From NCBI GenBank assembly GCA_019637695.1, contig JAHBVG010000003.1, positions 62,001 to 126,000 of the forward strand: 64,000 bases of DNA. Reading direction: 5' to 3'. The notes under the pieces were generated by a model. It saw only the letters and a list, made by a program, of their open reading frames with translations, was not told the origin of the DNA and made no database searches. This document shows, in pieces, positions 36,443-57,624 of this stretch; position 1 is the first letter of the stretch, and each line of letters begins with the position of its first letter. The position numbers and the translations under genes are program-made. This DNA comes from Caldilineaceae bacterium. Its GTDB lineage: Bacteria; Chloroflexota; Anaerolineae; Caldilineales; Caldilineaceae.

Positions 36443-38677
36443 ATGATTGCCGGTTCATCCTTTTTACGGCGTAACTGTGCGCACGTCGGTATCATCGCCG
36501 CCGTAGTCGTGATGATGGGTTTGCTGGGGGTTGCCGCCCAGCGGCTCGGTGCGGGGATCTATCAGCCGATGCCGGAACTCTATGCCGCACCCGCCAATGG
36601 CTTTCCGGATTCCACCGCCGACGGTATCCGCGCCTTTGCGCCCGGTCCCTCCGGTGTGGCGATTGCCCCCAATGGCCGGATCTACGTGGCTGTCTATCAG
36701 GACAACCGGGTCTATTCCTGGCCGGGTGTGGCGGGGATGTTTGCCGGGAACGCCCCCGATAAAACCTTTGGTATCGCCAATGGCAACCCAGATGCAGGCT
36801 GTACCAACGGCCCCACGGCTACAGTTCTCTGCGGCCCAGAAAGCGTGGCTGTAGACGCGGCGGGGAATCTCTATGTCGCCGACACCTACCACCACCGGAT
36901 TCTGGTTTTCTACAACCCGGACACAGACACCACCAGCACGGCAGCAGATGCATGGCTGGGTCAACCTGGCCTGAACAGCGGCTGGGGTAACTATGATAGC
37001 AATGGCAGCGATGGCATTGTGGAGGGCTTCTGTCATCCGCGCGGGGTGGCCGTGGACGCCAACGGTACCGTCTATGTGGCGGATGGGGGGAATCACCGGG
37101 TCTTGATTTTCAACAATCCGCTCACCGGCGACCGGCTGCCGGATCGGGTGCTGGGCCAGGCAAATTTTTCAAATGGCATCAATAGCCAGTGCGGCGTCGC
37201 TTACCCGGCTGGCGGCAGCGCGGCCAACCGTTTCTATTCACCGCTGGGTGTTGCTGTAGACAGCGGGGGGCATGTCTACGTGGCGGATCTTGTCAACAAC
37301 CGGGTGCAAGGGTTCGCCCCACCCCTGACCAACGGCATGAACGCGACCATAACCTTCGGGGGGCTGCACTTTCCCCACGACGTAGCCGTGGACAGGAACG
37401 ATAATCTCTATATTGCGGACACGCGCAACGACCGGGTGCTGGCCTACAGCCATCCACCGACCAACGATACCGTCGCCGACCACCTGTTTAGCGGGTTGAG
37501 CTACCCCATGGGGATGGCCTTCACCGCTGAGGGCCATTTTGTCCAGACCAATTGCGGCCCCAATTCCGTTGCCAATCCCCATGACTATCCGCCCTGTTTG
37601 GTGAATCCGCGCGATGTGCGTATCTTCCACGCGCCAGCCAGCGCGCCGACAGCGACGCCGACAGCGACCAACACGCCGACGGCGACGCGCACACCCACAG
37701 CGACGCCCACTCGCACGCCCACAGCCACGGCCACCAGCTCCATTGCCGATGGTTTTGAGCCGGACAATAGCTGCGAACAGGCGAAAGTCATTCCCACCAA
37801 CGGTAGCTTCCAGAACCGCAATTTCCACAACGAAGCCGACACCGATTGGATCCGCTTCTCGGCCCAGGCCAACAAAACCTATATCATCCAGGTGGAAAAT
37901 TTGGGGGCGCTGGCCGACGCCGTGGTCTTTTTGTACGATTCCTGTACCTCTGCGCCGGCGACAGCCGAGAACAACGCCTTCGGTTCCACGGTCACTATCG
38001 AGTGGGACTCGACCGAGAATCGCGATTACTACATTCAACTGCGCCAGTTCGACCCAACCCAGTTTGGGGCCACGGCCAACTACCGCATCTCCATCCGCGT
38101 GGACGGGACGCCGCCCTCTGCGCCCACCAATCCGCGCTGTATTTCCATCAACGACACCACCATCGGTATGCAGTGGAGACGCAGTCCTGAGCGCGATGTA
38201 CGCCGCTATCGGGTTAGCTATATCGGCGTCTCCGGCTCGGGCAACGATGATGTGTTTGGTGGAGATACCACTTACTACGAATTGGGCGGATTGATACCCG
38301 GCCAGACCTACGACCTACGTGTACAGGCATTGGACTTCTCACTCAACGAAAGTCCGTTTTCTGGGATGGTGCGTTGTACGGCGCTCACCCCGGCGGACAC
38401 CACTAAGCCACAGGTAACAGTTCAACAGCCGTCGGCGTCGGCGGTCTATTCCACCACGGCCAACCAGGTGACGGTGAGCGGCGCAGCCACGGATGCTGGC
38501 AACAACCTGAGCCGCGCCAATGTCCGCAACATGACCAACGGCAACGAGGGGTGGGACTACACGCTGGAGGGCAACAACGACACCTTCCGCGTCACCAACA
38601 TCCCGCTCAACATCGGGGTCAACAACATCCGTGTGTGCAGGTCTTCGCCGCTGGCAACATGGGCGAGCAGACCGTGA
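36443..38677 (+). CDS. Secreted NHL-PPC-Fn3 protein, 5' part of a frameshifted C13-like peptidase gene
   Basis: The N-terminus has a signal or anchor helix (about residues 14-35). Residues about 60-370 hold NHL propeller blades (VAVDAAGNLYVADTYHHRIL, VAVDANGTVYVADGGNHRVL and similar). A Thr/Pro linker (398-432) leads to a PPC domain starting DGFEPDNSCEQAK (about 434-555), then an Fn3-like domain (PPSAPTNPRC onwards) and an Ig-like domain (SAVYSTTANQVTVSG). The frame is lost at 38631-38636: GTGTG replaces the GTA of the paralogue at 42557, a 2-base gain. The peptidase domain continues in another frame. Without that gain the gene would run to 39798 and encode about 1118 residues. It may be a real inactivation or a sequence error. 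Confidence 0.8.
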   Translation: MIAGSSFLRRNCAHVGIIAAVVVMMGLLGVAAQRLGAGIYQPMPELYAAPANGFPDSTADGIRAFAPGPSGVAIAPNGRIYVAVYQDNRVYSWPGVAGMFAGNAPDKTFGIANGNPDAGCTNGPTATVLCGPESVAVDAAGNLYVADTYHHRILVFYNPDTDTTSTAADAWLGQPGLNSGWGNYDSNGSDGIVEGFCHPRGVAVDANGTVYVADGGNHRVLIFNNPLTGDRLPDRVLGQANFSNGINSQCGVAYPAGGSAANRFYSPLGVAVDSGGHVYVADLVNNRVQGFAPPLTNGMNATITFGGLHFPHDVAVDRNDNLYIADTRNDRVLAYSHPPTNDTVADHLFSGLSYPMGMAFTAEGHFVQTNCGPNSVANPHDYPPCLVNPRDVRIFHAPASAPTATPTATNTPTATRTPTATPTRTPTATATSSIADGFEPDNSCEQAKVIPTNGSFQNRNFHNEADTDWIRFSAQANKTYIIQVENLGALADAVVFLYDSCTSAPATAENNAFGSTVTIEWDSTENRDYYIQLRQFDPTQFGATANYRISIRVDGTPPSAPTNPRCISINDTTIGMQWRRSPERDVRRYRVSYIGVSGSGNDDVFGGDTTYYELGGLIPGQTYDLRVQALDFSLNESPFSGMVRCTALTPADTTKPQVTVQQPSASAVYSTTANQVTVSGAATDAGNNLSRANVRNMTNGNEGWDYTLEGNNDTFRVTNIPLNIGVNNIRVCRSSPLATWASRP

Positions 38678-39798
38678 CCACTCCGGTTGGGAACAGCCCC
38701 GGCGCGGTGATCATCATCGCCGGCCACAACGAGACCTACGGCTTGCAGACCAACATCTACAACTCGACCAACCGCGCCTATCGTATCTTTAAGAGCGCTG
38801 GCTTCAGCGATGAGGACATTTACTATCTCGCCCCTGTCGCCCAGGACGTGGACGGCGACGGCACGCCGGATAGCCGAAACGTTTCGCTCAACCCGACGGC
38901 GGTGCAACAGGCCATCACCGTATGGGCCAAGGATAAGGTGGGGCCGGACAAGCCCTTCTTCCTCTACATGATGGACCACGGTCTCGCCAACAAGTTCTGC
39001 GTCAACGGCTGCGCCGATGGTCTCAGCGTTACGCCCGACCAGTTGAACAGTTGGCTGAATACGCTGGAGGCAGAGACCGGCGTCACCGAGGTGACGGTGG
39101 TCTACGAGGCTTGCGTGTCGGGTAGTTTCATCCAGCGTGAGGGGAATGGCCTGGCGGGCAGCATCTCCAAACTAGGACGGGTGATTATCACCTCCACTGG
39201 CTACGACAACAACGCCTACGCTTCGGCGCAGGGCGCCTACTTCTCGGACGCCTTCTTCTCGTGTCTGGCCGACAGCGGCAACCTGGAGGAGTGTTTCATC
39301 GAGGGCAAGAATGCGGTGAGCGTCACCGGCGTTAACCAGACGCCCATGCTCGACGATAACGGCGATGGGATCTATGACTCGCCTGGCGATGGACTTGCTG
39401 CCCGTGAACGCTATGTGACCCGCTTCTTCAGCTCGGTGCGCCCCACCATTCAGGCATCGAATGTGGTGATCACAGGGACAAGTGGCCTCCTTTCTGCCAC
39501 CGTTCAGGAAGGGGCCGAAGTTGTGGAGCGGGTCTGGGCGGTGATCTTCCGGCCATCCTTCACCGAGCCGCCCGGCGATCCTACGCTGAACTTGAATGTC
39601 CCTGTGGTGGAGTTGAAACCGATCCCCAACCAGGCTGGGCGGTTCGAGATCAGCTATCCCGGCGGGTTCCAGGAGCAGGGCGAATATCGCGTCATCTTCT
39701 ACGCTCAGGATCGGTTGGGCATCAACGCCAAACCCTTGCGCCAGGGAGATGCGCCCGATATGGGGCACGGTATCTTTCTGCCCATGGTGGTTCGGTAA
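38659..39798 (+). CDS. C13 (legumain)-like peptidase domain, 3' part of the frameshifted gene
   Basis: This frame carries the catalytic part of the gene above. GAVIIIAGHNETYGLQTNIY starts the caspase-like fold. The catalytic His is in LYMMDHGLAN (codon 38977-38979), and the catalytic Cys is in VVYEACVSGSF (codon 39112-39114), matching the H-G ... E-A-C-x-S-G-S pattern of C13 legumains and GPI8. A beta-sandwich follows, and the protein ends GIFLPMVVR, the tag shared by the cluster. The ATG at 38659 is the first after the frameshift but lacks a ribosome site and a signal peptide, so an independent product would stay in the cytoplasm. The domain is about 85% like that of the next paralogue by eye. 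Confidence 0.8.
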   Translation: MGEQTVTTPVGNSPGAVIIIAGHNETYGLQTNIYNSTNRAYRIFKSAGFSDEDIYYLAPVAQDVDGDGTPDSRNVSLNPTAVQQAITVWAKDKVGPDKPFFLYMMDHGLANKFCVNGCADGLSVTPDQLNSWLNTLEAETGVTEVTVVYEACVSGSFIQREGNGLAGSISKLGRVIITSTGYDNNAYASAQGAYFSDAFFSCLADSGNLEECFIEGKNAVSVTGVNQTPMLDDNGDGIYDSPGDGLAARERYVTRFFSSVRPTIQASNVVITGTSGLLSATVQEGAEVVERVWAVIFRPSFTEPPGDPTLNLNVPVVELKPIPNQAGRFEISYPGGFQEQGEYRVIFYAQDRLGINAKPLRQGDAPDMGHGIFLPMVVR

Positions 39799-39905
39799 AG
39801 AGTAATGAGTAACGAGTAATGAGTAAACCGTGTTGAGAGGCCAAACGGACAAAGAGACTCTTGCCATGGTGGAGTCTCAATCTACTCATCACTCATTACT
39901 CGTTT
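39799..39905 (+). repeat. 107-bp 3'-flank repeat, copy 1 (with hairpin)
   Basis: Starts right after the stop codon. It matches 43712-43818 at all but two of 107 positions. Inside it, ACGAGTAATGAGT near the start can pair with ACTCATTACTCGT at the end, so it can also act as a terminator-like hairpin. Confidence 0.88.
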
Positions 39906-39969
39906 TACGCATTACGATTGACAGGTTTCAGGACTGTGTGGACTCAACATAAACTAGAGGATCTGAATT

Positions 39970-41229
39970 ATGAACTGGAAAACTCATTGGCTGTTCCAGA
40001 ATCGTTCTCGTGTCGCTTTGATTGCGAGCAGTGCTATGCTGCTGATGGCCCTGATCACGCTCTTGAGTGTATACGCTACGCTGACAGCGGATGCTGTCTC
40101 CATCGAGGCCAGGCCGGCGGCGGAGACGGCCGCGGTCTCCCCGGTCCTCACCTATCAGGGGCGGCTACTCAACCCGACCACGGGCGCGCCGCAGAACGGT
40201 ACACACACCTTTACCTTCGCCATCTACAATGTGGAGAGCGGGGGAGTGGCGCTGTGGACTGAAATCAAGAATGTTACGGTGAGCAATGGTCTCTTTTCAA
40301 CCTTGCTGGGGGATACAACTGCCATTCCTGCCAATCTCTTCACCGGACAGAATCTCTGGCTGGGGATCAAGGTGGGCGCGGATGCAGAGGCGACGCCGCG
40401 CCAGCGTCTGGCGCCTGTGGCCTACGCCATGTACAGCGACAACGCCGACCGGTTGGATGGGCTGGACAGCACCTATTTCCGCAATGCCACCAATATCAAC
40501 GCGGGCACGCTGGCCGATGCGCGCATCCCGGCGGCGATTACCCGCGACAATGAGGTGATGTCGATTGTAACAGCCAACGGCGGCACCGGCTCAGGATTGG
40601 ATGCAGATCTGCTCGATGGCAAGGATAGCACCGACTTTGCTGCGGCCAGTCATACTCACAATGGGAGTGATATTACTGCTGGTTCGATCGGCACAACCCA
40701 ACTAGCGAATAACGCTGTAACTGCGAGCAAAATAGCAACTGGCGCTGTAGGTGATGCCCAGATTGCAGATCGAACTCGTACCCTGTCGTTTCCTGCAAGC
40801 GCACTCAGCTTTGATCCCGCAAGTACCGTTATTAAAGCCGTTTTTAATGGGTTAGATTGGCAACGTAATTTTGCATCACCTGCGTATTTGATTATCTCCC
40901 GACCCGATGATTGGGATGGAACGAGCAATGTCTCTTTCACGATTCATTTCTATCCAACAACAAACTCCGCGGGGAATGTAGACTTTTTTATCAGACCCCG
41001 CGCTTATTCGGTAGGCGCTACATTTGCAGATGCATCTAGCCTCAACGCAACTCCAGTGGCCGCTGCTGGCACATCTGTAATTAATAAACAAACATTCTCT
41101 ATTTCCGCATCAAGCTTTAGCACTAGGGAACTCTGGGTTATCGCCATACAGAATCAAGGATCGGGATCTACTTATCCAGATGCGGTTCGTGTGATGTCAG
41201 TATCACTATCCTACACAGCTGTTCGTTAG
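39970..41229 (+). CDS. Secreted stalk/fibre-like surface protein
   Basis: A 419-residue exported protein. Residues about 15-40 form a signal or anchor helix (VALIASSAMLLMALITLLSV). Residues 55-160 (VLTYQGRLLNPTTGAPQNGT ... FSTLLGDT) are a domain seen at the start of many large bacterial surface proteins. Residues 160-265 contain collagen-free stalk-like units typical of phage tail fibres (LADARIPAAIT, GSGLDADLLDGKDSTDFAAA, QLANNAVTASKIATGAVG). The C-terminal 150 residues are beta-rich. It does not end in the LPxV tag. AGGA precedes the start. It lies between two near-identical peptidase genes, but its codon and GC style drops after about 40670, suggesting a different origin for the C-terminal part. 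Confidence 0.78.
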   Translation: MNWKTHWLFQNRSRVALIASSAMLLMALITLLSVYATLTADAVSIEARPAAETAAVSPVLTYQGRLLNPTTGAPQNGTHTFTFAIYNVESGGVALWTEIKNVTVSNGLFSTLLGDTTAIPANLFTGQNLWLGIKVGADAEATPRQRLAPVAYAMYSDNADRLDGLDSTYFRNATNINAGTLADARIPAAITRDNEVMSIVTANGGTGSGLDADLLDGKDSTDFAAASHTHNGSDITAGSIGTTQLANNAVTASKIATGAVGDAQIADRTRTLSFPASALSFDPASTVIKAVFNGLDWQRNFASPAYLIISRPDDWDGTSNVSFTIHFYPTTNSAGNVDFFIRPRAYSVGATFADASSLNATPVAAAGTSVINKQTFSISASSFSTRELWVIAIQNQGSGSTYPDAVRVMSVSLSYTAVR

Positions 41230-41269
41230 GCCCATTAATCACTCTGGGAAGAACGAAAAGGGAGCAACC

Positions 41270-43711
41270 TTGAAGCAGAGGCGTTATAGTCCAATTTGGG
41301 CTTTCATTTTACTCATATTACTGGCTGGTGTGACTTTGGCCCAGGTTTCCCCCAACTTCGACCTGCGTTGGTGGACTTTCCACGCGGGCGGGTCGCGCCA
41401 ATCGGCCAATTTCCTGATCCAAGACAGCGCCGGGCAGATGGCAGCGGGCGTCTCGACCAGCGCCGGCGCCAGGATCGAAAGTGGTTTCGTCCCCGGCATT
41501 GCGGCTGCGACGGCTACATCGACGCCCACGGCCACGCGCACGCCGACACACACACCGACCGTCACCAATACTTCGCCGCCCACAGCCACCCCGACGGCCA
41601 CGCGCACGCCGACAGCCACACACACGCCGACAGTGACACCGACGTCAACTAGCTCTATCGCCGATGCCTTCGAGCCGGACAACACCTGCGCGCAGGCCAA
41701 GCCCATCTCCACGGACGGCAGCTTCCAGAATCGCAACTTCCATGACGAAGCCGACAACGATTGGATCCGCTTCACCGCCCAGGCCAACCGAACCTATATC
41801 ATCCAGGTGGAAAATTTGGGGGCGCTGGCCGATGCTGTGGTCTTTTTGTACGATTCCTGTGGCGCTGTACCGGGGACGGCCGAGAACAACGCCTTCGGTC
41901 CCACCGTCACCATTGAGTGGGATTCGACCAAGAACGGCGATTACTACATTCAACTGCGCCAGTTCGACCCAACCAAGTTTGGGGCCACGGCCAACTATCG
42001 CATCTCCATCCGCGTGGACGGGACGCCGCCCTCTGCGCCCACCAATCCGCGCTGTCTTTCCATCAACGCTACCACGCTGGCGATGCAGTGGCGACGCAGC
42101 CCGGAGCGGGACGTGGTGCGCTATCGCGTCAACTTTGCCAATATCAACGGCACGTCCTCCGGCAGCGATGATGTACTGGGCGGGGATACCACCTATTATG
42201 AGTTGGGTGGGCTGAACACCGGCGATACCTATCGACTGCGTGTGCAGGCATTGGACTTCTCTAACAACGAAAGCCCGCTCTCCGGCCAGGTGGAGTGTAC
42301 GGTCAGCGTGCCGCCGGACATCACAATCCCGCAGGTAACGATCCAACAGCCGTCGGCGTCGGCGGTCTATTCCACCACGGCGAACCAGGTAACGGTGAGC
42401 GGTGTGGCGACGGACGCGGGCAACAACCTGAGCCGCGCCAACGTGCGCAACATGACCAACGGCAACGAAGGCTGGGACTACACGCTGGAGGGCAACAACG
42501 ACACCTTCCGCGTTACCAACATTCCGCTGCAGATTGGCGTCAACACCATCCGTGTACAGGTCTTCGATGCCGCTGGCAACATGGGCGAGCAGACCATGAC
42601 CATCACCCGGCTGGGGAACAGCCCCGGCGCGGTGATCATCATAGCCGGCCACAACGAGACCTTCGGCTTGCAGACCAACATCTACAACTCGACCAACCGC
42701 GCCTATCGCATCTTCAAGAGCGCTGGCTTCAGCGAGGATGACATCTATTACCTGGCCCCAGTAGCCCAGGATGCGGACGGCGACGGCGCACCCGACACCG
42801 ACGCCATCGCCACGCCGGCCAACTTCCAACAGGCCATCACCGTCTGGGCCAAGGACAAAGTCGGGCCGGACAAACCCTTCTTCCTCTACATGATGGACCA
42901 TGGGCTTGCCAACAAGTTCTGCGTCAGTGGCTGCGCCGACGGTCTCAGCGTTACGCCCGATCAACTCGATGAGTGGCTGCGCACACTGGAGACCGACACT
43001 GGCGTTACCGATGTGACCGTGGTCTACGAAGCCTGTGTGTCGGGCAGCTTCATCCAACGCGAGGGCGCACTGGGCAGCATCTCCAAACTAGGGCGGGTGA
43101 TCATCACCTCCACCGGTTTCAACAACAACGCCTACGCCTCGGCGCAGGGCGCGTACTTCTCGGATGCCTTCTTCTCGTGCCTGGCCGATAGTGGCAATTT
43201 GGAAGATTGTTTCAATGAAGGCAAGGATGCTGTCAACGTTACCGGCGTCAACCAGACGCCCATGCTCGACGACAACGGCGATGGGTTCTACAACGCTGGC
43301 GACGGCAGCGTGGCCCGTGAGCGCTTTGTGACGCGCTTCTTCAGTTCGGTGCGCCCGTCGATCGCGGCGTCGAATGTACAGCAGACGGGCGTAAACGGCG
43401 TCCTTTCGGCCACGGTGCAGGAAGGGGCCGAGGTCGTGAATCTGGTCTGGGCGGTCGTCTTCCCGCCCTCCTTCACGGAGCCAAGCGGCGATCCTACGTT
43501 GAATTTGAATGTGCCCGTCGTACGGCTCGAACCGGTCCCCAATCAGAAGGGGCAGTTCCAGGTCAGCTATCCCAACGGCTTCATCGAGGACGGCGAGTAC
43601 CGTATCATCTTCTACGCTCAGGACCGCCTGGGCGTCAACGCCAAACCCCTCCGCCAGGGAGATACGCCCACGTTGGAGAACAGTATCTTCCTGCCCATGG
43701 TGGTTCGGTAA
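41270..43711 (+). CDS. Secreted PPC-Fn3-C13 (legumain)-like peptidase
   Basis: The 813-residue protein starts at TTG with GGAG 5 bases upstream. A signal peptide (about 1-25, AFILLILLAGVTLAQ) precedes FDLRWWTFHAGGSRQSANFL, a short domain common in Chloroflexota exported proteins. A Thr/Pro linker spans about 82-125; then follow a PPC domain (FEPDNTCAQAK, about 130-250), Fn3 and an Ig-like domain. The C13-like domain spans about 460-680, with His544 (MMDHGLAN) and Cys589 (YEACVSGSF). A C-terminal sandwich ends in SIFLPMVVR. The legumain family cleaves after Asn or Asp and some members transfer peptides; which applies here is unknown. It is the intact relative of the frameshifted gene upstream. 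Confidence 0.85.
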   Translation: MKQRRYSPIWAFILLILLAGVTLAQVSPNFDLRWWTFHAGGSRQSANFLIQDSAGQMAAGVSTSAGARIESGFVPGIAAATATSTPTATRTPTHTPTVTNTSPPTATPTATRTPTATHTPTVTPTSTSSIADAFEPDNTCAQAKPISTDGSFQNRNFHDEADNDWIRFTAQANRTYIIQVENLGALADAVVFLYDSCGAVPGTAENNAFGPTVTIEWDSTKNGDYYIQLRQFDPTKFGATANYRISIRVDGTPPSAPTNPRCLSINATTLAMQWRRSPERDVVRYRVNFANINGTSSGSDDVLGGDTTYYELGGLNTGDTYRLRVQALDFSNNESPLSGQVECTVSVPPDITIPQVTIQQPSASAVYSTTANQVTVSGVATDAGNNLSRANVRNMTNGNEGWDYTLEGNNDTFRVTNIPLQIGVNTIRVQVFDAAGNMGEQTMTITRLGNSPGAVIIIAGHNETFGLQTNIYNSTNRAYRIFKSAGFSEDDIYYLAPVAQDADGDGAPDTDAIATPANFQQAITVWAKDKVGPDKPFFLYMMDHGLANKFCVSGCADGLSVTPDQLDEWLRTLETDTGVTDVTVVYEACVSGSFIQREGALGSISKLGRVIITSTGFNNNAYASAQGAYFSDAFFSCLADSGNLEDCFNEGKDAVNVTGVNQTPMLDDNGDGFYNAGDGSVARERFVTRFFSSVRPSIAASNVQQTGVNGVLSATVQEGAEVVNLVWAVVFPPSFTEPSGDPTLNLNVPVVRLEPVPNQKGQFQVSYPNGFIEDGEYRIIFYAQDRLGVNAKPLRQGDTPTLENSIFLPMVVR

Positions 43712-43818
43712 AGAGTAATGAGTAACGAGTAATGAGTAAACCGTGTTGAGAGGCCAAACGGACAAAGAGCCTCTTGCCATGGTGGAGTCTCAACCTACTC
43801 ATCACTCATTACTCGTTT
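43712..43818 (+). repeat. 107-bp 3'-flank repeat, copy 2
   Basis: Follows the stop codon of the second C13-like gene exactly as copy 1 follows the first. Only two base differences were seen. The ribosome site of the next gene (AAGGAG) lies just beyond it. Confidence 0.88.
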
Positions 43819-43837
43819 CAAAAAGGAGCCTTTTGCA

Positions 43838-46800
43838 ATGCGACAAAGAGTAGCCGTATCGATCCTGATCCTGAGCCTAGCCGCCATCCTGATCCTACGC
43901 GATCAGGCGACAGCAGCGCGCATGGATCTTGACCTGAGCGCGCTGCGCGCGTCCGCTGCCAACCTGCTCGGCTCGGCCATGCCCCGCGACCGGGGAGGGG
44001 CAACCACGCCTTCGCTCAACAGCGACCGTTTGGAGATCAACCTGAGCGGCGTGCAATCGCCCCCGGCTGGCTTCGATCTGCAAGCCTATTTGCTGGATGG
44101 CAACAACGGCGCGTTCTGCGGTACGTTGACCGTCAACAACGGCAACGTCAACGCGGTGAAGGAATTCGATGACAGAAATCTGGTGCAGAGCTACAACAGT
44201 TTCCGCCTGATGTGGGAGCGCTCGCTTTTTGAGACGACGACGCCCGACGCCGCCTTGACCTATCTGCGCCAGGTGCTGACCACCGTCGCCGGTACACCGC
44301 AGCAGGTGGGCTATGGCGTGGGCATGGTACGCGAGGCGCGCACCCTCTTGGAACATGCCAGCCTGGCCGCAGGATCGCCAAACCTGGCTGGCGCAAGACT
44401 CCATACAGAACATGTGCTGAACATCCTGTATGGCAAGGCCGATCCGCGCCACCAGGACTACGACGGCAACGGTGCAGCGGAAAACCCCGGCGATGGCTTT
44501 GGCCTCCTCCCCTATGTGGCCGGGGTCGATCTGGCGATGACCTATGCCGCCGAGAGTGAGGGGCGCACCGAACACATCTTCCAACAGTCGTTGGCGACCC
44601 TCACCACCCTGGGCAACTTCGCCCCCGCCGACGGAGATGGAACTTGGGCGGATCTGGTGGTAGCGCAGGCCCATCAGGTGCTGGCCGCAGGGACTATCGG
44701 CGCAGCCAGGACGCCTGTCGATACCATGCGCGATCTCGCTGCGCAGATCCTCAACGGCACAGACGCCAACTCCAACGGAACCGTGGAACCCATCGCCGGC
44801 GAAGGTGGGGTGTGGACAGCCTACGCCGCCGCGCAAGGCGCAGCCGATTTCCTCCCCAGCGGCGCGATCACAGGCTCAGTGCGCCACGTCCGCGCCGGCA
44901 ACAACCCCACCAGCGACCGCCTGGTGATCAGCCTGGACAATGTGCCCCAGCCCCCCAGCGGCTTCCAGGTCTGGGGCTATCTCATCGGCCCGAACGATAA
45001 CCGGCTGGTGCTGGGCCAGCTTCCCTGGAACAACGGCAAAGTTGAAACCACCCTGACCTATGCCAATCGCAACCTGATCGGCGAGTTCCACGGCTTGCAG
45101 CTGGTCCACGCCTCGATCTATGCCCAGGATACATTGCCGACAGCCCCGCTCACCCCCATCCGCACGATTTTGGGGACATCTAACAGTACGCCGGGCAATG
45201 TTGGCTACGGTGTGGGGCTGGTGCAACAGGCGCAGATTCTACGAACCCTAGCCGAGCAGGCCAGCGCTGCAGCTTCATTCAACAATTTACCCCTGGCCCA
45301 GCAACGGGCCAAAGAAGCGTTGAATGTCCTTGTGGGTGAGGACGATCCACGCTACCAACCCGACGCCGCTAACCCTGGCGATGGCTTCGGCGTGCTGGTC
45401 TATGCGGCGCGGCTGGATCTATCCATGCAGCAGGCCGCCGCCAATGCCAGCGCCACCGTCAACATGATCCAGCGCAGCGACCAGGCCCGCGCTGCCGTCG
45501 CCAACTTTGCACCCGCCATTGGCGGCGGCACATGGTCCGACGAATTGATCAGCCAGATTCAACAGATCCTGGCCGCACAAATGCCGGATGCCGCCACGGT
45601 CCCCGCCAGCCAGGCCGCTACGTTGGCGGATCGTATCCTCAACGGCCAGGGAGATCTGGGCGGGGCAAGGGCGGCCTATCTTGCCAGCCAGCAGAGCGCG
45701 GATTATTTCCCGCTGGAAGCAGGGGCGACACAGCCCGGCGAGAACCCGGTCCCCGGCCCCAACCCGGATGCGTTCGAGAACGACGATCTGTGCAGTCGCG
45801 CCCGCATTATCACCACCGATGGGGTGGCGCAGCGGCGCACCTTCCACTACGACGGCGATCAGGATTGGGTACGCTTCACGGCCCAGGCCAACAAGAGTTA
45901 TGTCATCGATGTGATCGGCGTGGGCAACAAGGCCGATCCTGTGATCTTCCTCTTTGACACCTGTGGCGCAGCGCCCGGCGCGTTTGAGAACAACACCTTT
46001 GGCAACAGTGTGCGCCTGATCTGGAATTCCACCAAGAACGGGACTTATTACATGCAGTTGCGCCAGTTCGATCCGGCGGATTTTGGACCGGACACCGAAT
46101 ACGATCTGCGCGTCACCGTGGACGAGACGCCTCCCTCGCCGCCCACCAATCTGCGCTGCCTCGCCATCGACCAGAACACGCTGGCTCTGCAATGGCGGCG
46201 CAGTCCCGAGTTGGATGTGAAACAGTACCGGGTCAGCTACGCCAACGAGAACCAGTCCAATACTGGCATCATCAATGTGGACGGGGCCGATACGACCTTT
46301 GTGCAACTGGGCGGGTTGACCCACAACGAACTCTTCAATTTGAGTGTGACAGCAGTGGACTTCTCGAACAACCAGAGTGCCCCTGCCGGCCCACTCCCAT
46401 GCCGCCCGGTACAGCCGACAGACGCCACCCAACCGGTGATCGGCAGCTTGTCACCCTCCTTTTCTGCGATCTATACCACCACGGCGCCGTTGCTCACCTT
46501 CAGCGGCACGGCCCAGGACGCTGGCAACAACCTGAGCCGGGTGCGTGTGCGCAACAGCAGCGTGGGCCAGGAGAAGACAGACTTCACCCTCTCCGGCGGC
46601 GCGGCAGAGTTCCGCGTCGAGGACATCCCCATCCGCGTGGGGGTCAACAACGTGCAGGTGACGGTCTTCGACGAGGCCAACAACAGCAGCAGCCACAACA
46701 TGGTCATCAACCGGCTGGCCGAAGGACGCGGCGCGGCCATCATCGTGGCCGGTCATAACGAGACCTTCGGCTTGCAGACCAACATCTACAACGCGGCCAA

Positions 46801-47806
46801 CCGCGCCTATCGGATCTTCCTCAGCGCCGGTTTCAGCGCCGACGATATCTACTATCTCGCCCCCGTCGCCCAGGACGCCACCGGCGACGGCACGCCCAAT
46901 ACGCGCAATCTTCCCCTCAGCCCGGCAGCAGTGCAGGAGGCGATCACCGGCTGGGCTAAGGACAAGGTGGGCGACGGCAAGCCGCTTTTCATCTATCTGA
47001 TGGACCACGGCTTCGCTGACCGCTATTGTGTCACCGGTTGTACGCCCGGCAATGTGATCAGCCCGGCGGAGCTGGACACCTGGCTGCGCAATCTGGAAGA
47101 CACCACCGGTGTGAACGAGGTCAATATCTTTATTGAGGCGTGTGAATCGGGCAGCTTTTTGGACAACCTGCCTGATCCGAGCAACAGCCTGGCCCGCCAG
47201 AACCGGGTGGTAATCACCTCTACCAGCCGCGATAAGAACGCCTACGCTTCCACCGATGGAGCTATCTTCTCGGATACCTTCTTCTCGTGTCTGGCCGACA
47301 GCGGCACTATTAAAGCCTGCTTCGACGAGGCCAGCGTCGCCGTCGCCATTACCGGCGTACAGCAGGAACCCTGGCTCGACGACAACGCTGATGGCGTCCC
47401 CAATTCAGGGGATGGCACTGTCGCCAGTTCGCGCACGCTGACCCGCTTCTTCAGTTCGGTGCGCCCGCGTATCCTGGAGACCGAGGTGACGCGCAGTGGC
47501 AACAATGGCGTCCTCACGGCGCGGGTAGAGGCCGGGGCTGAATCGTTGCGACTGGTCTGGGCTGCGGTCTACGCGCCGTCGTTCACCGAGCCAACCACCA
47601 CTACGCTCAACTTGAATGTGCCTGTGGTACGGCTTGAGCCGGTCCCCGACGATCCGGGACTCTTCCGCTTCAATTACACGAATGGATTTACCGAACCCGG
47701 CGACTATCGGGTCATCTTCTACGCCCAGGATCGTCTGGGCATCAACGCCACGCCCAGACGTTTCGGCGCGGTCGAGGAGATCTATTTGCCAGTGGTCAAT
47801 CGGTGA
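43838..47806 (+). CDS. Large secreted C13 (legumain)-like peptidase with duplicated N-terminal domain
   Basis: The 1322-residue protein has a signal peptide (about 1-27). Two copies of an unrecognised domain follow at about 58-330 (DRLEINLSGVQSPPAGFDLQ) and 362-640 (DRLVISLDNVPQPPSGFQVW). Each carries a strand-rich start, GYGVGMV or GYGVGLV helices and an NPGDGFG turn. Then come a PPC domain (FENDDLCSRAR), an Fn3 domain and an Ig-like domain. The C13-like domain (about 965-1190) has His1057 in LMDHGFAD and Cys1102 in FIEACESGSFLD, the closest of the three to canonical E-A-C-E-S-G-S legumain sites. It ends EEIYLPVVNR. GGAG lies 9 bases upstream. The first domain pair might bind substrate or surface polymer; that is a guess. 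Confidence 0.85.
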   Translation: MRQRVAVSILILSLAAILILRDQATAARMDLDLSALRASAANLLGSAMPRDRGGATTPSLNSDRLEINLSGVQSPPAGFDLQAYLLDGNNGAFCGTLTVNNGNVNAVKEFDDRNLVQSYNSFRLMWERSLFETTTPDAALTYLRQVLTTVAGTPQQVGYGVGMVREARTLLEHASLAAGSPNLAGARLHTEHVLNILYGKADPRHQDYDGNGAAENPGDGFGLLPYVAGVDLAMTYAAESEGRTEHIFQQSLATLTTLGNFAPADGDGTWADLVVAQAHQVLAAGTIGAARTPVDTMRDLAAQILNGTDANSNGTVEPIAGEGGVWTAYAAAQGAADFLPSGAITGSVRHVRAGNNPTSDRLVISLDNVPQPPSGFQVWGYLIGPNDNRLVLGQLPWNNGKVETTLTYANRNLIGEFHGLQLVHASIYAQDTLPTAPLTPIRTILGTSNSTPGNVGYGVGLVQQAQILRTLAEQASAAASFNNLPLAQQRAKEALNVLVGEDDPRYQPDAANPGDGFGVLVYAARLDLSMQQAAANASATVNMIQRSDQARAAVANFAPAIGGGTWSDELISQIQQILAAQMPDAATVPASQAATLADRILNGQGDLGGARAAYLASQQSADYFPLEAGATQPGENPVPGPNPDAFENDDLCSRARIITTDGVAQRRTFHYDGDQDWVRFTAQANKSYVIDVIGVGNKADPVIFLFDTCGAAPGAFENNTFGNSVRLIWNSTKNGTYYMQLRQFDPADFGPDTEYDLRVTVDETPPSPPTNLRCLAIDQNTLALQWRRSPELDVKQYRVSYANENQSNTGIINVDGADTTFVQLGGLTHNELFNLSVTAVDFSNNQSAPAGPLPCRPVQPTDATQPVIGSLSPSFSAIYTTTAPLLTFSGTAQDAGNNLSRVRVRNSSVGQEKTDFTLSGGAAEFRVEDIPIRVGVNNVQVTVFDEANNSSSHNMVINRLAEGRGAAIIVAGHNETFGLQTNIYNAANRAYRIFLSAGFSADDIYYLAPVAQDATGDGTPNTRNLPLSPAAVQEAITGWAKDKVGDGKPLFIYLMDHGFADRYCVTGCTPGNVISPAELDTWLRNLEDTTGVNEVNIFIEACESGSFLDNLPDPSNSLARQNRVVITSTSRDKNAYASTDGAIFSDTFFSCLADSGTIKACFDEASVAVAITGVQQEPWLDDNADGVPNSGDGTVASSRTLTRFFSSVRPRILETEVTRSGNNGVLTARVEAGAESLRLVWAAVYAPSFTEPTTTTLNLNVPVVRLEPVPDDPGLFRFNYTNGFTEPGDYRVIFYAQDRLGINATPRRFGAVEEIYLPVVNR

Positions 47807-47989
47807 ATGGGGATTGGTGACTGGTGACTGGTGACTGGGATCTGGTACAGGATCTGACATCACTGAATGACTCAATCGCTGTTGACAAAGGAATAACGGC
47901 TGAGATTCTCTACCCAATTCCTAGTCACCAGTCAACTATCACCGCCGTGTATCAAATTCCGGCCTCAGGGCCACCAATTGGATAAGCCT

Positions 47990-50900: not shown

Positions 50901-52168
50901 TGGGTGGAGATATTCGGGCCAGTGAGATCATGACCGCCACCAATAGCTTTGTGCGCTCGCTGGTCTACAACGTGGGCTGTCACGGCGGCCTCAACGATAG
51001 CGCCGTCCTCGATCTGCCGCAGGCATTTGTCTCCAAGGGTGCAATCTATGTGGGCAATACTGGTTTCGGCTGGGGCGGCGGCGGCATCGTCTACTCCGAA
51101 GCGTTGATGCGCAACTTCACGCGCGAGTTCCTCACCGAACGGAAGGCTATCATCGGCCCGTCGCTCTCGGCGGCGAAACAGAGCTATGTGGCGCGGGCGC
51201 GCACCTTCGGCGGCTACGACGCCAAGATCCTCATGCAGACGACGCTCTACGGCCTGCCCATGTTCGAGATCACCAGCGGCGGCACGCTGAGCGACGATGA
51301 TCCCTTCACCGATGTGGCGCCATCGATTTCTCCGCCGGGATCGTTCAGCGAAGAGCCGAACCGGGGCAGTTTCGGCTATGGGTTGCCCCAATCCTTCGGC
51401 GCGTTCAGCGCGGACGATAACGACTATCGGACCAATCTGAAGAGTACCGACAGCATCTTCTTCGAGGCTGGCGCGCCGATTCAGCCCAGCTATTATCGAG
51501 ATCTGTCGGTCCCCAATGCTGGCAGCCTGCGCGGGGTCCTCTTCCGCGGCGGCGTCTATACAGACACAGTGGCGGAAGCGCCCATCGCCCTGGCTCTCAA
51601 CGAATATATCACCGAGACCACAGCGCCGGATTTCAACACGACTGGTTGGTATCCGTCTGTGCCCTTTGCCGTACAGAGCAGCGCCCTGAATCCATCTCTG
51701 CGCGATACGGTGGCCCTCTCGCTGGGTCAATACGACAGCGCGACCGGTACACAGCGTGTCTTCGACCGCATGAGCTTTGACACCTATTACTCGGATAGTC
51801 CGGATCGCAGCCTAGCCGAGATCCACCATATAGACGCTGTCCTTGATGTGGTCGCTGGCAAAGGTATCTTCAAGGTAGAGACCACCGACGCATCTGGCGT
51901 CAACCGCGTGGTGATCGCCTATACCGAAGGCACTGGCACCTGGACCAGCCAGGATCTTCTCTATGATCAAGCCGCCGTCAAGTGGACGGGGTTGATCACT
52001 GCAACCACCAATACCCGCTACTTCGTCCAGGTGGTGGATGGCGCCGGCAACATCGCCATCGACGACAACAAGGGGCAGTACTATCCCCTGCTGCCGCCGC
52101 TGCCACTGGCCCAGGGACGAGCGTTAGACAATCGGCTCTATTTACCCGCTGTTACGAAAGGAAATTGA
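47990..52168 (+). CDS. Secreted C25 (gingipain)-like peptidase with four PPC domains
   Basis: The 1392-residue protein has a signal helix (about 20-43), a CARDB-like domain (DLTVELQVIPSVPNPGEAST) and four PPC domains (FEDDDNSDKAG, FEPDDVCGQAR, FEENDTLNQAK, ADDATGDNGPADAR, each with a GDxDW strand). A Pro/Thr linker (about 675-705) precedes the C25-like domain. There, His961 sits in SINGHATHVS and Cys997 in NVGCHGGLND, the H-G/C dyad of gingipains and PorU. LAYLVIVGDDRVIPF also matches this family. A C-terminal sandwich follows and the protein ends NRLYLPAVTKGN. In Bacteroidota, C25 members include secreted proteases and the T9SS sortase PorU; no other T9SS gene is in view. The start codon is chosen among TTG 47978, ATG 47990 and ATG 47999. 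Confidence 0.86.
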   Translation: MSSMHSSHSLQPTLPTRTRRFLLAGVVLALLAALAMVALRQVQAAPDTGPDLTVELQVIPSVPNPGEASTVRMIFRNRGTAPSSPATFYFYVNPAQKPPTQATAPSYFSGVPSLPAGGSFQFERSVTFNTVGCDHIVYTWVDRDQQVTDVDRSNNLVGLQVCVGVQCEVDDFEDDDNSDKAGWINVSATQERSFCRDTNTGLTPKGDQDWVKFTAFAGLTYTLATTNSGLHAEPRIVLWSGGLSYTLAGPSASVVWQPPANGVYYAQIRNNFDEDEAKLGPLSRYDLRLSAVPAVTDSFEPDDVCGQAREIPTNGTHQTRLFQAPGDVDWIKFTIAAGETFALVADQTAQGVVPTITLFSSCVQSRSAENVAEGVRQVSAFSSSDQIYYARIANQDPNRFGADASYRLSVLAANCIPDAFEENDTLNQAKPLGLNQPQTHNICPAGDQDWVSLNLTAGQIYVIKTSNLGFAADTVLELYNAQGVKIAENDDYDYVKASRLFYQPTTSGVYYAMVRHHDPVAAGANTNYDLTLEVGFCIPDEADDATGDNGPADARTVPTNGTPVARNFCVNPSTRSQGDQSSLGDQDWMRFTAVAGARYHLYTDDLGPNADTIVSLYDRDGFTLLARSDDNGPGLSTAVIYTPTVAGDYFVQVTQYNSRLVGRETSYNLRIEENLPPPTPTPTPLPPTPTPTATPTPDPSGVRTLIVANRARMESIHGAGPTGLIMAKLFELADHTGVDGAVLQVEQDPAVAAAYAAWTASASTQMSNTLANNVASAIRNSILSFSAAAPDLAYLVIVGDDRVIPFRRVAEAKLSKNENAYATQLTTPNTIAAALAEDMILTDDFYADLEPSQWKGNELFVPDFAIGRLIQEPNEIIGQIDIFLGGGLIDTERALVTGYDFVQDSASLIRGLMVNDSEFEVFPPTYIGNIWPGSGAGGLRSTLLTASPAGSRFDMISINGHATHVSIGVPLGGDIRASEIMTATNSFVRSLVYNVGCHGGLNDSAVLDLPQAFVSKGAIYVGNTGFGWGGGGIVYSEALMRNFTREFLTERKAIIGPSLSAAKQSYVARARTFGGYDAKILMQTTLYGLPMFEITSGGTLSDDDPFTDVAPSISPPGSFSEEPNRGSFGYGLPQSFGAFSADDNDYRTNLKSTDSIFFEAGAPIQPSYYRDLSVPNAGSLRGVLFRGGVYTDTVAEAPIALALNEYITETTAPDFNTTGWYPSVPFAVQSSALNPSLRDTVALSLGQYDSATGTQRVFDRMSFDTYYSDSPDRSLAEIHHIDAVLDVVAGKGIFKVETTDASGVNRVVIAYTEGTGTWTSQDLLYDQAAVKWTGLITATTNTRYFVQVVDGAGNIAIDDNKGQYYPLLPPLPLAQGRALDNRLYLPAVTKGN

Positions 52169-52244
52169 TCCTATGGCATGAACTACGCGCTATTCTTGTC
52201 CCCCCGAGATAGTAGAGATTCAATTTACTCAAGGAGGAAACCGA

Positions 52245-54548
<2,304 letters not shown>

Positions 54549-54562
54549 CCTGTACGCTTCTA

Positions 54563-54646
54563 GCCTGGCGGGTTTGTAGCCTGGGGCTTAAGCCCCAGGC
54601 TACAAACCCCAGGCTACAAACCCCAGGCTACAAACCCGCCAGGAGG
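54563..54646. repeat. Large palindrome with repeated arm, covering a ribosome-binding site
   Basis: The centre 54573-54606 is a perfect 34-bp palindrome around CTTAAG. Its right arm (CCCCAGGCTACAAA) is repeated twice more at 54608-54634. Outer arms CCTGGCGGG (54564-54572) and CCCGCCAGG (54635-54643) close the structure. The AGGAGG ribosome site of the lipoprotein gene (54641-54646) begins inside the outer arm. It may also terminate the upstream gene. Confidence 0.88.
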
Positions 54647-54652
54647 CGTTGT

Positions 54653-55132
54653 ATGTTCAATTCTTGTCGCAGGTTGGTCATGCTCCTGCTCAGTCTCATC
54701 ATTACCGGCTGTATAGGAATACCCACTGCGACCGTTCCTCAGGAACAGCTTCTTCCTGAACCTGTGGAGATCCGCATCATCCAGGGGGAGCAGCAACAGA
54801 CGCTTGTCCCCGCGGATGAGGAATTCGGTGCTGTCGTGGCGGCGCTGCGGCCTGTGTTGGCAAATATTGACAACCAGGCGCGGACCTTCTTCTCGCCAGA
54901 TCGCTTTGCCGAAGAAATTGAACCGATTGCTTATGTTTATATTCGTTTCGACGATGATGAGAAATTCAGTGGTCAGGAGATCTCGTGGTTCGCATCCGAA
55001 CTCATCGTCACCCAGGTTGCCGACGAAGCGCTCTTACTGGCGCGGACAATCAATGTTGTGGATTGGGCTGTCTATCTACCAGCGGACCCGGCAACCGTTG
55101 AGGGATTTCTCAGCGCGCTGATCCCGCGATGA
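54653..55132 (+). CDS. Small lipoprotein of unknown function (159 aa)
   Basis: The N-terminus MFNSCRRLVMLLLSLIITGC is a type II signal peptide with lipobox I-I-T-G-C, so the mature protein would begin at Cys20 with a lipid anchor. The mature 140 residues have alternating strands and helices (VEIRIIQGEQQQTLVPADEE, AYVYIRFDDDEKFSG, WAVYLPADPATVEGFLSALI) without a motif I can name. AGGAGG lies 6 bases upstream and overlaps the palindrome stem. The gene sits between the two related clan CD-like genes, so it may be an accessory factor for one of them; that is inference. Confidence 0.8.
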   Translation: MFNSCRRLVMLLLSLIITGCIGIPTATVPQEQLLPEPVEIRIIQGEQQQTLVPADEEFGAVVAALRPVLANIDNQARTFFSPDRFAEEIEPIAYVYIRFDDDEKFSGQEISWFASELIVTQVADEALLLARTINVVDWAVYLPADPATVEGFLSALIPR

Positions 55133-55446
55133 TCGGGCATTCGATCCTCGCTGCTTTCAGCGCAGACCTCGCTCCTTTTGGGGAATCGAGTCAGATCCTC
55201 TCCCCAAACCGATGGCGTCGTCCATAAGTTTGCTCATATCCGTGCAGGGACAATATTAATCATCCCTTCACATTAGATAGAACGTGTCACAGTGAGCAAC
55301 TGTTTTCCAGGGGTAAGAAAGGAGAATTCGCCCCAAGCGCTACTGAAGGGTTGATGAACTTAGGGTCATATTCAACCGTTCAGCAGCACCACCGAGATCG
55401 TTTGTAAACGGCTCGACCCATCAATGTAATCAACGAGGAGCGAACA
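55133..55446. other. Intergenic region (314 bp)
   Basis: No gene, repeat or clear promoter was recognised. GAGGAG at 55436-55441 is the ribosome site of the following gene. Confidence 0.4.
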
Positions 55447-57624
55447 ATGTCAGGTAAAATACATGTCCGTATGTTGTATACTTTGCCGCTTGTGCTGCTG
55501 ATGCTTTTACTATTGGCATCCGCCGTATGGGCAGGCGAACCCGAAGAAGAACCCGGCGGCTCAGGTGAGCCTGTCGGTGAGACAAGCGCTGCCGCCGTTT
55601 CAGGTCCTTACGACGACGGCGGCAACTGGGAATTGGGCATCCACGGCACAGCCGGCGATCTTACAGCAGCCACGGCGGCTGAACGCGCCGGTATGAGCTA
55701 CTGGTTAGCCCCAGCCAGCAACTGGACCCAACGCTATAGCTTTGCCGAGTCCGGCTCTTGGGAAAAGGACTTCAAGCGTGATAACGTGACGCCGAGTGGT
55801 TGGGAGAATTCCTACATCGACAGCGTGGATCTCCAATTCTACGTCGGCCACGGCTGGCCGGGTGGTTTTACCTTCTTCAACAGCAGCTACAATGATGGCT
55901 CGCTCGTCCCCAACGACTGTTATCGGAGTTGGGGCGATAGAGACAACGAGTGGTTGGCGCTCACCTCCTGCCAGGTGCTGGCCGATTCCAACCTGGGCAA
56001 CTGGGCGGCCTGTATGTACGGCCAACATCTGATCATGGGTTTTGTCACCAACGCCAGCGCCTACAACAACGCGTCGAGTACACAGGCCTATCACTTTGGC
56101 CGTTACATCATGCAGAATTACACCATGCCGCAAGCCTGGTACAAAGCCTGCGATGTAGCCCAGCGCGGTCGCATTACCCGCACCATCATCAACGAATTGG
56201 ATTGTCTAAACGACAAACCCAACTATGGTCAAGTATGCGCGGATTCCTATGATTGGGACTGGTGGTATCAGACCCACTCGTGTGGAACGGAAACGGCTCT
56301 CTATGTACCATCCCAGGATATTCAACAGTTGCCGGTCTTCAAGGCCAAAGCGTTGACGCTACAAGAAGCAGATAACAGATTTGCGACCCTGGGCGAAACG
56401 TTCGGGCTGCCCACCACGCCAACTGTACAGGCTGCTGGTTTAGGTCAGGACGACTCGAACTTCTACATCACCGAGGTGAACTCGCGCACGCTGGAGATGG
56501 ACAAGGTCAGCGGTCTCTTCAACTACTCAGACTTGAACGCACTGTGGACGACGGACCAGGCAGTGCGCGCCATGTCTGTGAGCGCAGCCTCGCCCAACTA
56601 CATCAGTCAGGATGACGCCAGACAGATCGCCGATGCCTTCTTGCGCAACAGCAAGCTAGGCGCGTCCGACGCCGTCTTCTACGAAGTGATCTCCGACACG
56701 ATCTCTAGTGAGATCATTACGACGACGTTGACGGCGGCGGCGTTGGACGATGTGGAAGAGTTCCCCATCCTCTGGCAGGTGATCTACTCACGCCGCCTCC
56801 ATGCGCAGACCATCAACGCGGCCGGCGTTATGCAGGAACAAGAATTCTCGGTCGTTGGCTCTGGCGCCAAGCAGAAGGTCTACGTACCTGTAGCGGCAGA
56901 GGTCGGCGCAGCGGATATCTTGCAGACGCAACCTAACGGTGTCCAGGGTGGCTGGCGCCAAATCGAGCAGGCGGTGGATGCAGCCACCGGTGAAGCCCTC
57001 TACACCACGATCCTCACGGCAGAGGAGGTGAAGGCGCTCTATCTCGCATTGCTGGATAAAGTCGCGCTTAACGACCTTCCCATTGAGGTAAAGAGTCGTG
57101 AGATTCTGACCCATACTATCGCTTATTGGGAAGAACCTGTAGGCGTGGATCAGGGTGAGTTCATCCCTGTCTACGAGCTGAAGCTCAAACTGGTTGAAGC
57201 GCAGAGCGATGCTGTGGTTGAGGACTTTGTCTATGTTCCGGCCAGCCCGATCTATATGCGTCCTGTGGCGAAGATCTTGGATGCGCCGACAGAACCCATC
57301 AACGCAGGGACGGCCATCAGCCTGACAGCAGCCGATGCCAGCAAGTCGCTCAAGGAATTGGGATTCGGCGACTTCAACATTGTGTTAGGCAGCGGAGATC
57401 CGACAGATTACCAATACGACTGGTATCTCGACGGCGAACTGATTGAGAGTGGACCGGCGCTCAACAATTTCGTCATTCCATTTAGTGCAGATAATCGCGC
57501 GCTATCGGTGACAATTGAATTGCGGGTGAAAGATATCCGAAGCCCCAACACCAATACAGTTGCTACGGACAAGGCTGTTATCACCAGCGACCTCGGCATC
57601 TTCTTGCCTACGGTCACTCGATAA
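55447..57624 (+). CDS. Secreted clan CD-like protein with GHG/Cys dyad (DUF6345-like), copy 2
   Basis: The 725-residue protein has a signal peptide (about 1-29, TLPLVLLMLLLLASAVWA). The catalytic-type domain (about 55-280) contains YIDSVDLQFYVGHG with His135, SWGDRDNEWLALTSCQVL with Cys175, HLIMGFVTN and FGRYIMQNYTMPQAWYKACD. These blocks align one-to-one with the protein at 52245, including the 40-residue His-Cys spacing. The central segment LEMDKVSGLFNYSDLNALW and the sandwich near YLDGELIESGPALN also match. The last residues are LGIFLPTVTR. Extra cysteines in copy 2 could form disulfides outside the cell. GAGGAG lies 5 bases upstream. A strong hairpin follows 60 bases after the stop. Confidence 0.8.
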   Translation: MSGKIHVRMLYTLPLVLLMLLLLASAVWAGEPEEEPGGSGEPVGETSAAAVSGPYDDGGNWELGIHGTAGDLTAATAAERAGMSYWLAPASNWTQRYSFAESGSWEKDFKRDNVTPSGWENSYIDSVDLQFYVGHGWPGGFTFFNSSYNDGSLVPNDCYRSWGDRDNEWLALTSCQVLADSNLGNWAACMYGQHLIMGFVTNASAYNNASSTQAYHFGRYIMQNYTMPQAWYKACDVAQRGRITRTIINELDCLNDKPNYGQVCADSYDWDWWYQTHSCGTETALYVPSQDIQQLPVFKAKALTLQEADNRFATLGETFGLPTTPTVQAAGLGQDDSNFYITEVNSRTLEMDKVSGLFNYSDLNALWTTDQAVRAMSVSAASPNYISQDDARQIADAFLRNSKLGASDAVFYEVISDTISSEIITTTLTAAALDDVEEFPILWQVIYSRRLHAQTINAAGVMQEQEFSVVGSGAKQKVYVPVAAEVGAADILQTQPNGVQGGWRQIEQAVDAATGEALYTTILTAEEVKALYLALLDKVALNDLPIEVKSREILTHTIAYWEEPVGVDQGEFIPVYELKLKLVEAQSDAVVEDFVYVPASPIYMRPVAKILDAPTEPINAGTAISLTAADASKSLKELGFGDFNIVLGSGDPTDYQYDWYLDGELIESGPALNNFVIPFSADNRALSVTIELRVKDIRSPNTNTVATDKAVITSDLGIFLPTVTR

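What the first reader, a model, noticed from the sequence alone, without database searches (positions are those of the whole stretch)
36443..57624. Cluster of six secreted clan CD (caspase-fold) proteins
Within 21 kb on one strand there are three C13/legumain-like proteins, one C25/gingipain-like protein and two DUF6345-like proteins, each with a strand-His-Gly and a later strand-Cys. They share PPC, Fn3 and Ig-like modules, while a lipoprotein and a stalk-like protein are interleaved. C25 includes PorU, a sortase-like enzyme, and C13 includes GPI8, a transamidase. A secreted peptide-processing or surface-attachment system is therefore a reasonable hypothesis.
Basis: partly seen in the sequence, partly recalled or inferred. 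Interest (0 to 1): 0.85.

Follow-up and report, generated by a model that had tools for sequence, protein, structure and literature searches.

The report
Conserved secreted caspase-fold protease gene cluster
A Chloroflexota bacterium (Caldilineaceae) carries a conserved row of genes for secreted caspase-fold protein-cutting enzymes, and every one of them ends in the same eight-residue type of tail that many other secreted proteins of this phylum carry, which looks like an undescribed address label for the cell exterior.

Summary
The cluster is real. Pfam places three C13/legumain-type, one C25 and two DUF6345 proteins on one strand. Catalytic His and Cys are conserved in orthologues. It is not scatter: the order fibre gene - C13 (1-3) - C25-like - DUF6345 (1-3), or most of it, recurs in at least seven related assemblies. 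Corrections: the first C13 gene is split by a frameshift; the C25-like protein has His-Ala/Ser, not His-Gly; the DUF6345 proteins lack PPC/Fn3; DUF6345's caspase fold is suggested, not proven.

This tag ends at least 23 own-genome proteins, mostly secreted, and recurs in several Chloroflexota families. The cluster proteins are therefore most likely tagged cargo: secreted cysteine endopeptidases held in one extracellular place. They are not the machine that reads the tag, because 9 of 20 tag-bearing family genomes lack the C13 subfamily. Across the phylum the tag tracks the C25 family; sortases track it within the family, but one tag-rich genome has none. Protease function and tag-based retention are inferred. 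I found no published description of the tag in the papers held.

The parts
36443..38677 (+). First C13-type gene, 5' part: signal peptide, NHL repeats, TP-rich linker, PPC, Fn3, Ig-like; ends by frameshift
   Evidence: Pfam NHL 133.6 bits, fn3 41.8, PPC 20.1; 83% identical to P0004 over 301 aa
38551..39798 (+). First C13-type gene, 3' part after the frameshift: legumain-type C13 domain and tag GIFLPMVVR-COOH (likely true coding from about 38637)
   Evidence: Pfam Peptidase_C13 31.5 bits; 82% identical to P0004; frame change
39970..41229 (+). Secreted stalk/fibre-like protein; no tag
   Evidence: NF053851 mosaic adhesive trimer N-terminus 40 bits, below cut-off 60; homologue heads the cluster in other genomes
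41270..43711 (+). Second C13-type protein: PPC, Fn3, Ig-like, C13, tag SIFLPMVVR-COOH (start codon TTG as called)
   Evidence: Pfam; DHG and EACVSGS motifs
43838..47806 (+). Third C13-type protein: unassigned N-terminal region, PPC, Fn3, Ig-like, C13, tag EIYLPVVNR-COOH
   Evidence: Pfam C13 36.5 bits; 57% identical to P0004 over 684 aa
47978..52168 (+). C25-like protein: CARDB, PPC repeats, TP linker, C25 domain, C-terminal region, tag RLYLPAVTKGN-COOH
   Evidence: Pfam C25 35.9 bits; hhalign to strong C25 set 96.5%, E 9e-10, over 334 columns with His and Cys aligned
52245..54548 (+). DUF6345 protein 1, tag PPIYLPAVQSQ-COOH; H143-G144 and C183 conserved
   Evidence: Pfam 124.9 bits; alignment; AlphaFold2 model pLDDT 74
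54653..55132 (+). Small lipoprotein-like protein; no tag
   Evidence: N-terminus with lipobox-like SLIITGC; 37% identical homologue in the same place in L101; no Pfam/NCBIfam hit
55447..57624 (+). DUF6345 protein 2, tag GIFLPTVTR-COOH
   Evidence: Pfam 112.8 bits; 37% identical to protein 1

Best explanation
A conserved Caldilineaceae gene cluster encodes a set of Sec-exported, multi-domain cysteine endopeptidases of (or resembling) clan CD, together with a fibre-like protein and a small lipoprotein. The enzymes carry a short C-terminal tag, [IL][YF]LPx[VIL]xR-COOH, shared with much of the large-protein exoproteome, and so are cargo delivered to or held at the same extracellular site. There the C13 enzymes probably cut after Asn/Asp and the C25-like one after a basic residue (by family analogy), digesting or maturing extracellular protein, while PPC, CARDB, Fn3 and Ig-like modules bind substrate or matrix. 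Shown: domains, conserved dyads, synteny, the tag and its enrichment. Inferred: export route, catalysis, specificities, that DUF6345 is a peptidase, and that the tag directs retention.
For: Domains; dyads conserved across divergent orthologues; C13 profile matches legumain in the PDB, E 0.0011, with DHG and EACxSGS aligned; C25-like matches a strong C25 profile, E 9e-10; conserved gene order. Tag: 25 C-terminal matches in 1605 frames against 2.9 expected; 14 of 106 secreted-like proteins tagged against 5 of 1398 others, p 3e-13; DNA pattern 38 hits against 1 control in this genome, and 8-45 against 0-1 in 18 other family genomes. Tagged proteins also include beta-helix, CHRD, beta-propeller/LCAT and SdrD-like proteins, so the tag belongs to no single fold. 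Several strong C25 proteins of tag-poor genomes end at the domain without a tag.
Against: No activity data. A nutritional role is not separated from predation, defence or maturation. AlphaFold2 failed for the C25-like half (pLDDT 45). One C25-like homologue (L174) has lost both His and Cys. Secretion was scored by a simple hydrophobicity rule. Not all large secreted-like proteins carry the tag (12 of 41 of 500 aa or more).
Confidence: 0.6

Rival explanations
1. The cluster is the processing machine: a C13 or C25 enzyme acts like PorU or GPI8, cutting the tag and attaching cargo to a surface molecule.
For: C25 tracks the tag: 13 of 14 phylum genomes with 4 or more tag hits have strong C25 against 17 of 187 others (p 2e-11), and 19 of 20 against 5 of 26 in the family.
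Against: 9 of 20 tag-bearing family genomes lack the C13 subfamily and 11 of 20 lack DUF6345. G002 (99% complete, 20 tags) has no strong C25; genus g3 has strong C25 without the tag. Most C25 proteins read in tag-bearing genomes themselves carry the tag or a variant, as cargo would. Associations are not corrected for phylogeny.
Confidence: 0.12
2. The tag is read by a classical sortase (LPXT-like), and the cluster proteins are its wall-anchored substrates.
For: In the family, sortase is in 20 of 20 tag-bearing and 6 of 26 other genomes (p 5e-8). A C25 gene lies beside a sortase gene in Herpetosiphon-like and Caldilineaceae genomes. LPx[VI] resembles LPXT.
Against: G212 (97% complete) has 15 tag hits against 1 control and no sortase. 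The phylum-wide association is weak (13 of 14 against 121 of 187, p 0.04). No membrane helix with basic tail follows the motif; some variants keep P but not LP.
Confidence: 0.15
3. The genes form an attack or defence set, for example a fibre plus proteases used in predation or against competitors.
For: The fibre gene heads the cluster and weakly matches a Bdellovibrio mosaic adhesive trimer model; the tag also occurs in Herpetosiphon-like genomes (the predatory habit of Herpetosiphon is from general knowledge).
Against: The fibre match is below its cut-off; no immunity gene or delivery component was seen; fibre-like stalks are widespread.
Confidence: 0.08
4. Neighbouring duplicates of unrelated secreted proteins with no shared function.
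For: C13 paralogues are clearly tandem duplicates; G043 has an array of about eight C13 proteins.
Against: Three different families keep the same order across genera.
Confidence: 0.05

Closest known systems
Peptidase family C13, legumain branch (PF01650)
   Same: DHG and EACxSGS catalytic motifs; nearly all PDB matches are legumain/asparaginyl endopeptidase
   Different: Secreted bacterial multi-domain proteins with PPC, Fn3, Ig-like, NHL or LRR modules and a C-terminal tag; weak Pfam scores (26-37 bits)
Peptidase family C25 / gingipain and PorU (PF01364, NF033707)
   Same: Aligned over 334 columns with both catalytic positions
   Different: Divergent; His-Ala/Ser instead of His-Gly; no PorU match for the window protein
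DUF6345 (PF19872)
   Same: Strong Pfam match
   Different: Family of unknown function; here His-Gly and Cys invariant; the model's best PDB matches are 5coz, the YpeB C-terminal domain and YycI, probably through the C-terminal part
Short C-terminal sorting signals (PEP-CTERM, GlyGly-CTERM, MYXO-CTERM, LPXTG; T9SS CTD)
   Same: A short C-terminal motif on many unrelated secreted proteins, patchy across genomes
   Different: Eight residues to the carboxyl end, no membrane helix, no basic tail beyond a final Arg/Lys, reader unknown

Membership tests
Peptidase C13 (legumain) | Pfam model above gathering score | tested here: met
   26.2, 31.5, 36.5 bits against 22.8
Peptidase C13 (legumain) | Catalytic His-Gly and E-A-C motif | tested here: met
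   17 of 17 relatives; aligned to legumain
Peptidase C13 (legumain) | Asn/Asp-specific peptidase activity | not testable with these tools
   needs protein
Peptidase C25 | Pfam model above gathering score; full domain | tested here: met
   35.9 bits, partial stretch only; hhalign E 9e-10 over the domain
Peptidase C25 | Catalytic His and Cys | tested here: met
   NGHAT and GCH align with the catalytic positions; conserved in 6 of 7
T9SS sortase PorU | NF033707 above cut-off | tested here: not met
   no hit for P0006; 126 and 135 bits against 420 for the genome's strong C25 proteins
Type IX secretion system | Translocon and core components | not tested
   no search was made for SprA, PorV or PorK-N
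GPI8 transamidase | GPI8-specific sequence and GPI pathway | not tested
   only legumain-type motif and PDB matches seen
Clan CD (for DUF6345) | Caspase fold with His and Cys at the ends of neighbouring strands | tested here: inconclusive
   model: strand 137-141 then H143, strand 177-181 then C183, pLDDT 74; PDB search led by other folds, MALT1 only at rank 49, E 0.11; hhalign not significant
Sortase substrate (LPXTG type) | Motif plus membrane helix plus basic tail | tested here: not met
   tag reaches the stop 8 residues after its start in 19 of 23; nothing follows it
Sortase substrate (LPXTG type) | Sortase present in every tag-bearing genome | tested here: not met
   G212 has none

The most novel reading that the evidence does not exclude
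[IL][YF]LPx[VIL]xR-COOH is an undescribed C-terminal protein-sorting signal of several Chloroflexota families, read by an unknown partner that needs the free C-terminus, and the caspase-fold cluster is one of its main cargo sets; C25 enzymes, in several genomes paired with a sortase gene, may take part in it.
Probability: 0.45. Interest if true: 0.85.

Novelty: new variant of a known kind. Interest (0 to 1): 0.6.

Why it matters
If the tag is a sorting signal, it would define the surface proteome of Caldilineaceae, Herpetosiphon-like and related Chloroflexota and give a simple sequence test for it. The conserved gene cluster makes DUF6345, a family without known function, testable as a peptidase, and offers bacterial legumain-type enzymes in a defined gene context.

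Tried and rejected
(1) C13/DUF6345/C25-like as the reader of the tag: rejected because tag-rich relatives lack them. (2) Classical sortase as sole reader: promising in the family, rejected as necessary by G212. (3) C25 as reader: best correlate, but G002 and genus g3 break it and C25 proteins are mostly tagged themselves. (4) AlphaFold2 of the C25-like half: pLDDT 45, not used. (5) Profile comparison of DUF6345 with C13 and C25: not significant; against the C25-like set it does pair GHG with GH and C with C, but at E 0.41, which proves nothing. (6) Literature searches for the tag, DUF6345 and the protein set: nothing found in the held library, which lacks most subscription papers. (8) 'Tag-negative' genus g8, and perhaps G052, may use a K or T variant, so negatives are approximate. 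(9) A first count of tag-bearing family genomes as 26 (used) was wrong; the correct 20 of 46 is used.

Full report
Setting. The window is contig C85, 62001-126000, of a 6.8 Mb assembly. Relatives of its C13 domain were found in assemblies named Caldilineaceae, Litorilinea aerophila and Anaerolineae (Chloroflexota), and one unnamed bacterium.

The observation. Nine reading frames from 36443 to 57624 lie on the + strand with gaps of 40-314 bases, apart from the two overlapping frames of the first gene. Pfam finds Peptidase_C13 in three of them, Peptidase_C25 in one and DUF6345 in two. The first C13 gene is broken: the NHL-PPC-Fn3-Ig half runs into a frame change near 38637, after which the C13 half is intact; the site contains a short TG repeat and differs from the paralogue there. 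This may be a recent mutation or an assembly error.

Catalytic sites. C13: DHG and EACx[SA]GS in 17 of 17 sequences; the profile reaches legumain in the PDB at E 0.0011 with both motifs aligned. C25-like: Pfam alone sees a partial domain, but profile comparison with five strong C25 proteins of the phylum gives 96.5% probability, E 9e-10, with NGHAT opposite GHGA and GCHGG opposite TCLEG; 6 of 7 orthologues keep both residues, the divergent L174 copy has lost both. DUF6345: H143-G144 and C183 invariant in 13 of 13. The AlphaFold2 model (mean pLDDT 74, pTM 0.79) puts H143 just after strand 137-141 and C183 just after strand 177-181, as in the caspase fold, but I could not measure distances, and the PDB search of the whole model was led by 5coz, YpeB and YycI, presumably through the C-terminal region. 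So DUF6345 as a clan CD peptidase is likely, not shown.

Conservation of the cluster. The order stalk - C13 - (C13) - C25-like - DUF6345 - (lipoprotein) - DUF6345, or most of it, recurs in RI_153 (L101), CHL15 (L102), ACE_CHL8 (L103, and a shorter second locus L104), Ww71 (L105, partial), CHL12 (L108), Gw_Eff_bin_337 (L109) and, without the C25-like gene in the piece held, CG2_30_64_16 (L110). In 46 family genomes the C13 subfamily occurs in 11, DUF6345 in 11, both in 8 (p 8e-5). Among the loci seen, an extra C13 gene upstream of the stalk gene was found in this genome only.

The shared tail. The six proteins end in IFLPMVVR, IFLPMVVR, IYLPVVNR, LYLPAVTKGN, IYLPAVQSQ and IFLPTVTR. In 1.96 Mb of this genome, 25 of 1605 frames end in [ILVFM][FYW]LP within 8 residues of the stop, against 2.9 expected from the internal rate. 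A stricter set of 23 falls into 10 homology groups; 19 of 23 are exactly eight residues from motif start to stop; the consensus is [IL]-[YF]-L-P-x-[VIL]-x-R. Tagged proteins include beta-helix, CHRD, beta-propeller/LCAT, SdrD-like and DUF11 proteins. The DNA form of the tag, with the same pattern read backwards as control, gives 38 against 1 here, 3-45 against 0-1 in 19 other family genomes and 0-1 in the remaining 26; a slightly wider pattern is enriched outside the family in families f12, f26, f27 and f37 of the phylum. f37 genome G154 has contig sizes that I recall as those of Herpetosiphon aurantiacus; that identification is from memory.

What reads the tag is unknown. The cluster's own enzymes do not fit, since 9 of 20 tag-bearing family genomes lack the C13 subfamily. 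C25 as a family fits best (13 of 14 against 17 of 187 phylum genomes), yet G002 has tags and no strong C25, genus g3 has C25 and no tags, and most C25 proteins read in tagged genomes carry the tag or a variant. Sortases are in all 20 tag-bearing family genomes but absent from tag-rich G212. These counts are not corrected for shared ancestry. A C25 gene adjoins a sortase gene in eight genomes of two classes, by coordinates and in part by reading the DNA, a link worth following.

Mechanism. The most likely reading is Sec export, tag-dependent delivery or retention at the surface, and cysteine-dependent cleavage of extracellular protein, with accessory modules for binding. Only the sequence-level steps are shown. 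Nutritional digestion is favoured because extracellular peptidase activity has been linked to Chloroflexota in activated sludge (PMC11495043) and because the enzymes are multi-modular and duplicated; maturation of the co-encoded fibre or lipoprotein is possible.

Verdict. Known enzyme families in a conserved cluster that I did not find described in the held literature, carrying an apparently undescribed C-terminal tag. The cluster alone would rate about 0.45; with the tag 0.6.

Noticed in passing
36443-57624 and genome-wide (L004-L100): Short C-terminal tag [IL][YF]LPx[VIL]xR-COOH on many unrelated secreted proteins, recurring in several Chloroflexota families.
   Followed up: partly
L181 1346-5046; L183 5478-9628; L184 4018-8174; L185 2552-6847: C25 gene directly beside a sortase gene, in Herpetosiphon-like and Caldilineaceae genomes, in different relative orders.
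   Followed up: partly
38551-38677: Frameshift splitting the first C13 gene; short TG repeat at the site; small differences from the paralogue.
   Followed up: partly
L171-L173 (G043:C410): Array of about eight C13 proteins, most with PPC and most tagged.
   Followed up: no
39970-41229: Stalk-like protein with weak similarity to the N-terminus of Bdellovibrio mosaic adhesive trimer fibres, conserved at the head of the cluster.
   Followed up: partly
52245-54548, protein residues about 285-620: Region after the DUF6345 domain probably resembles YpeB/YycI-type (PepSY-like) domains, which could be an inhibitory or folding region.
   Followed up: no
L006 3-9926: Very large tagged multi-Ig protein upstream on the same contig, ending LIYLPFISN.
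   Followed up: partly
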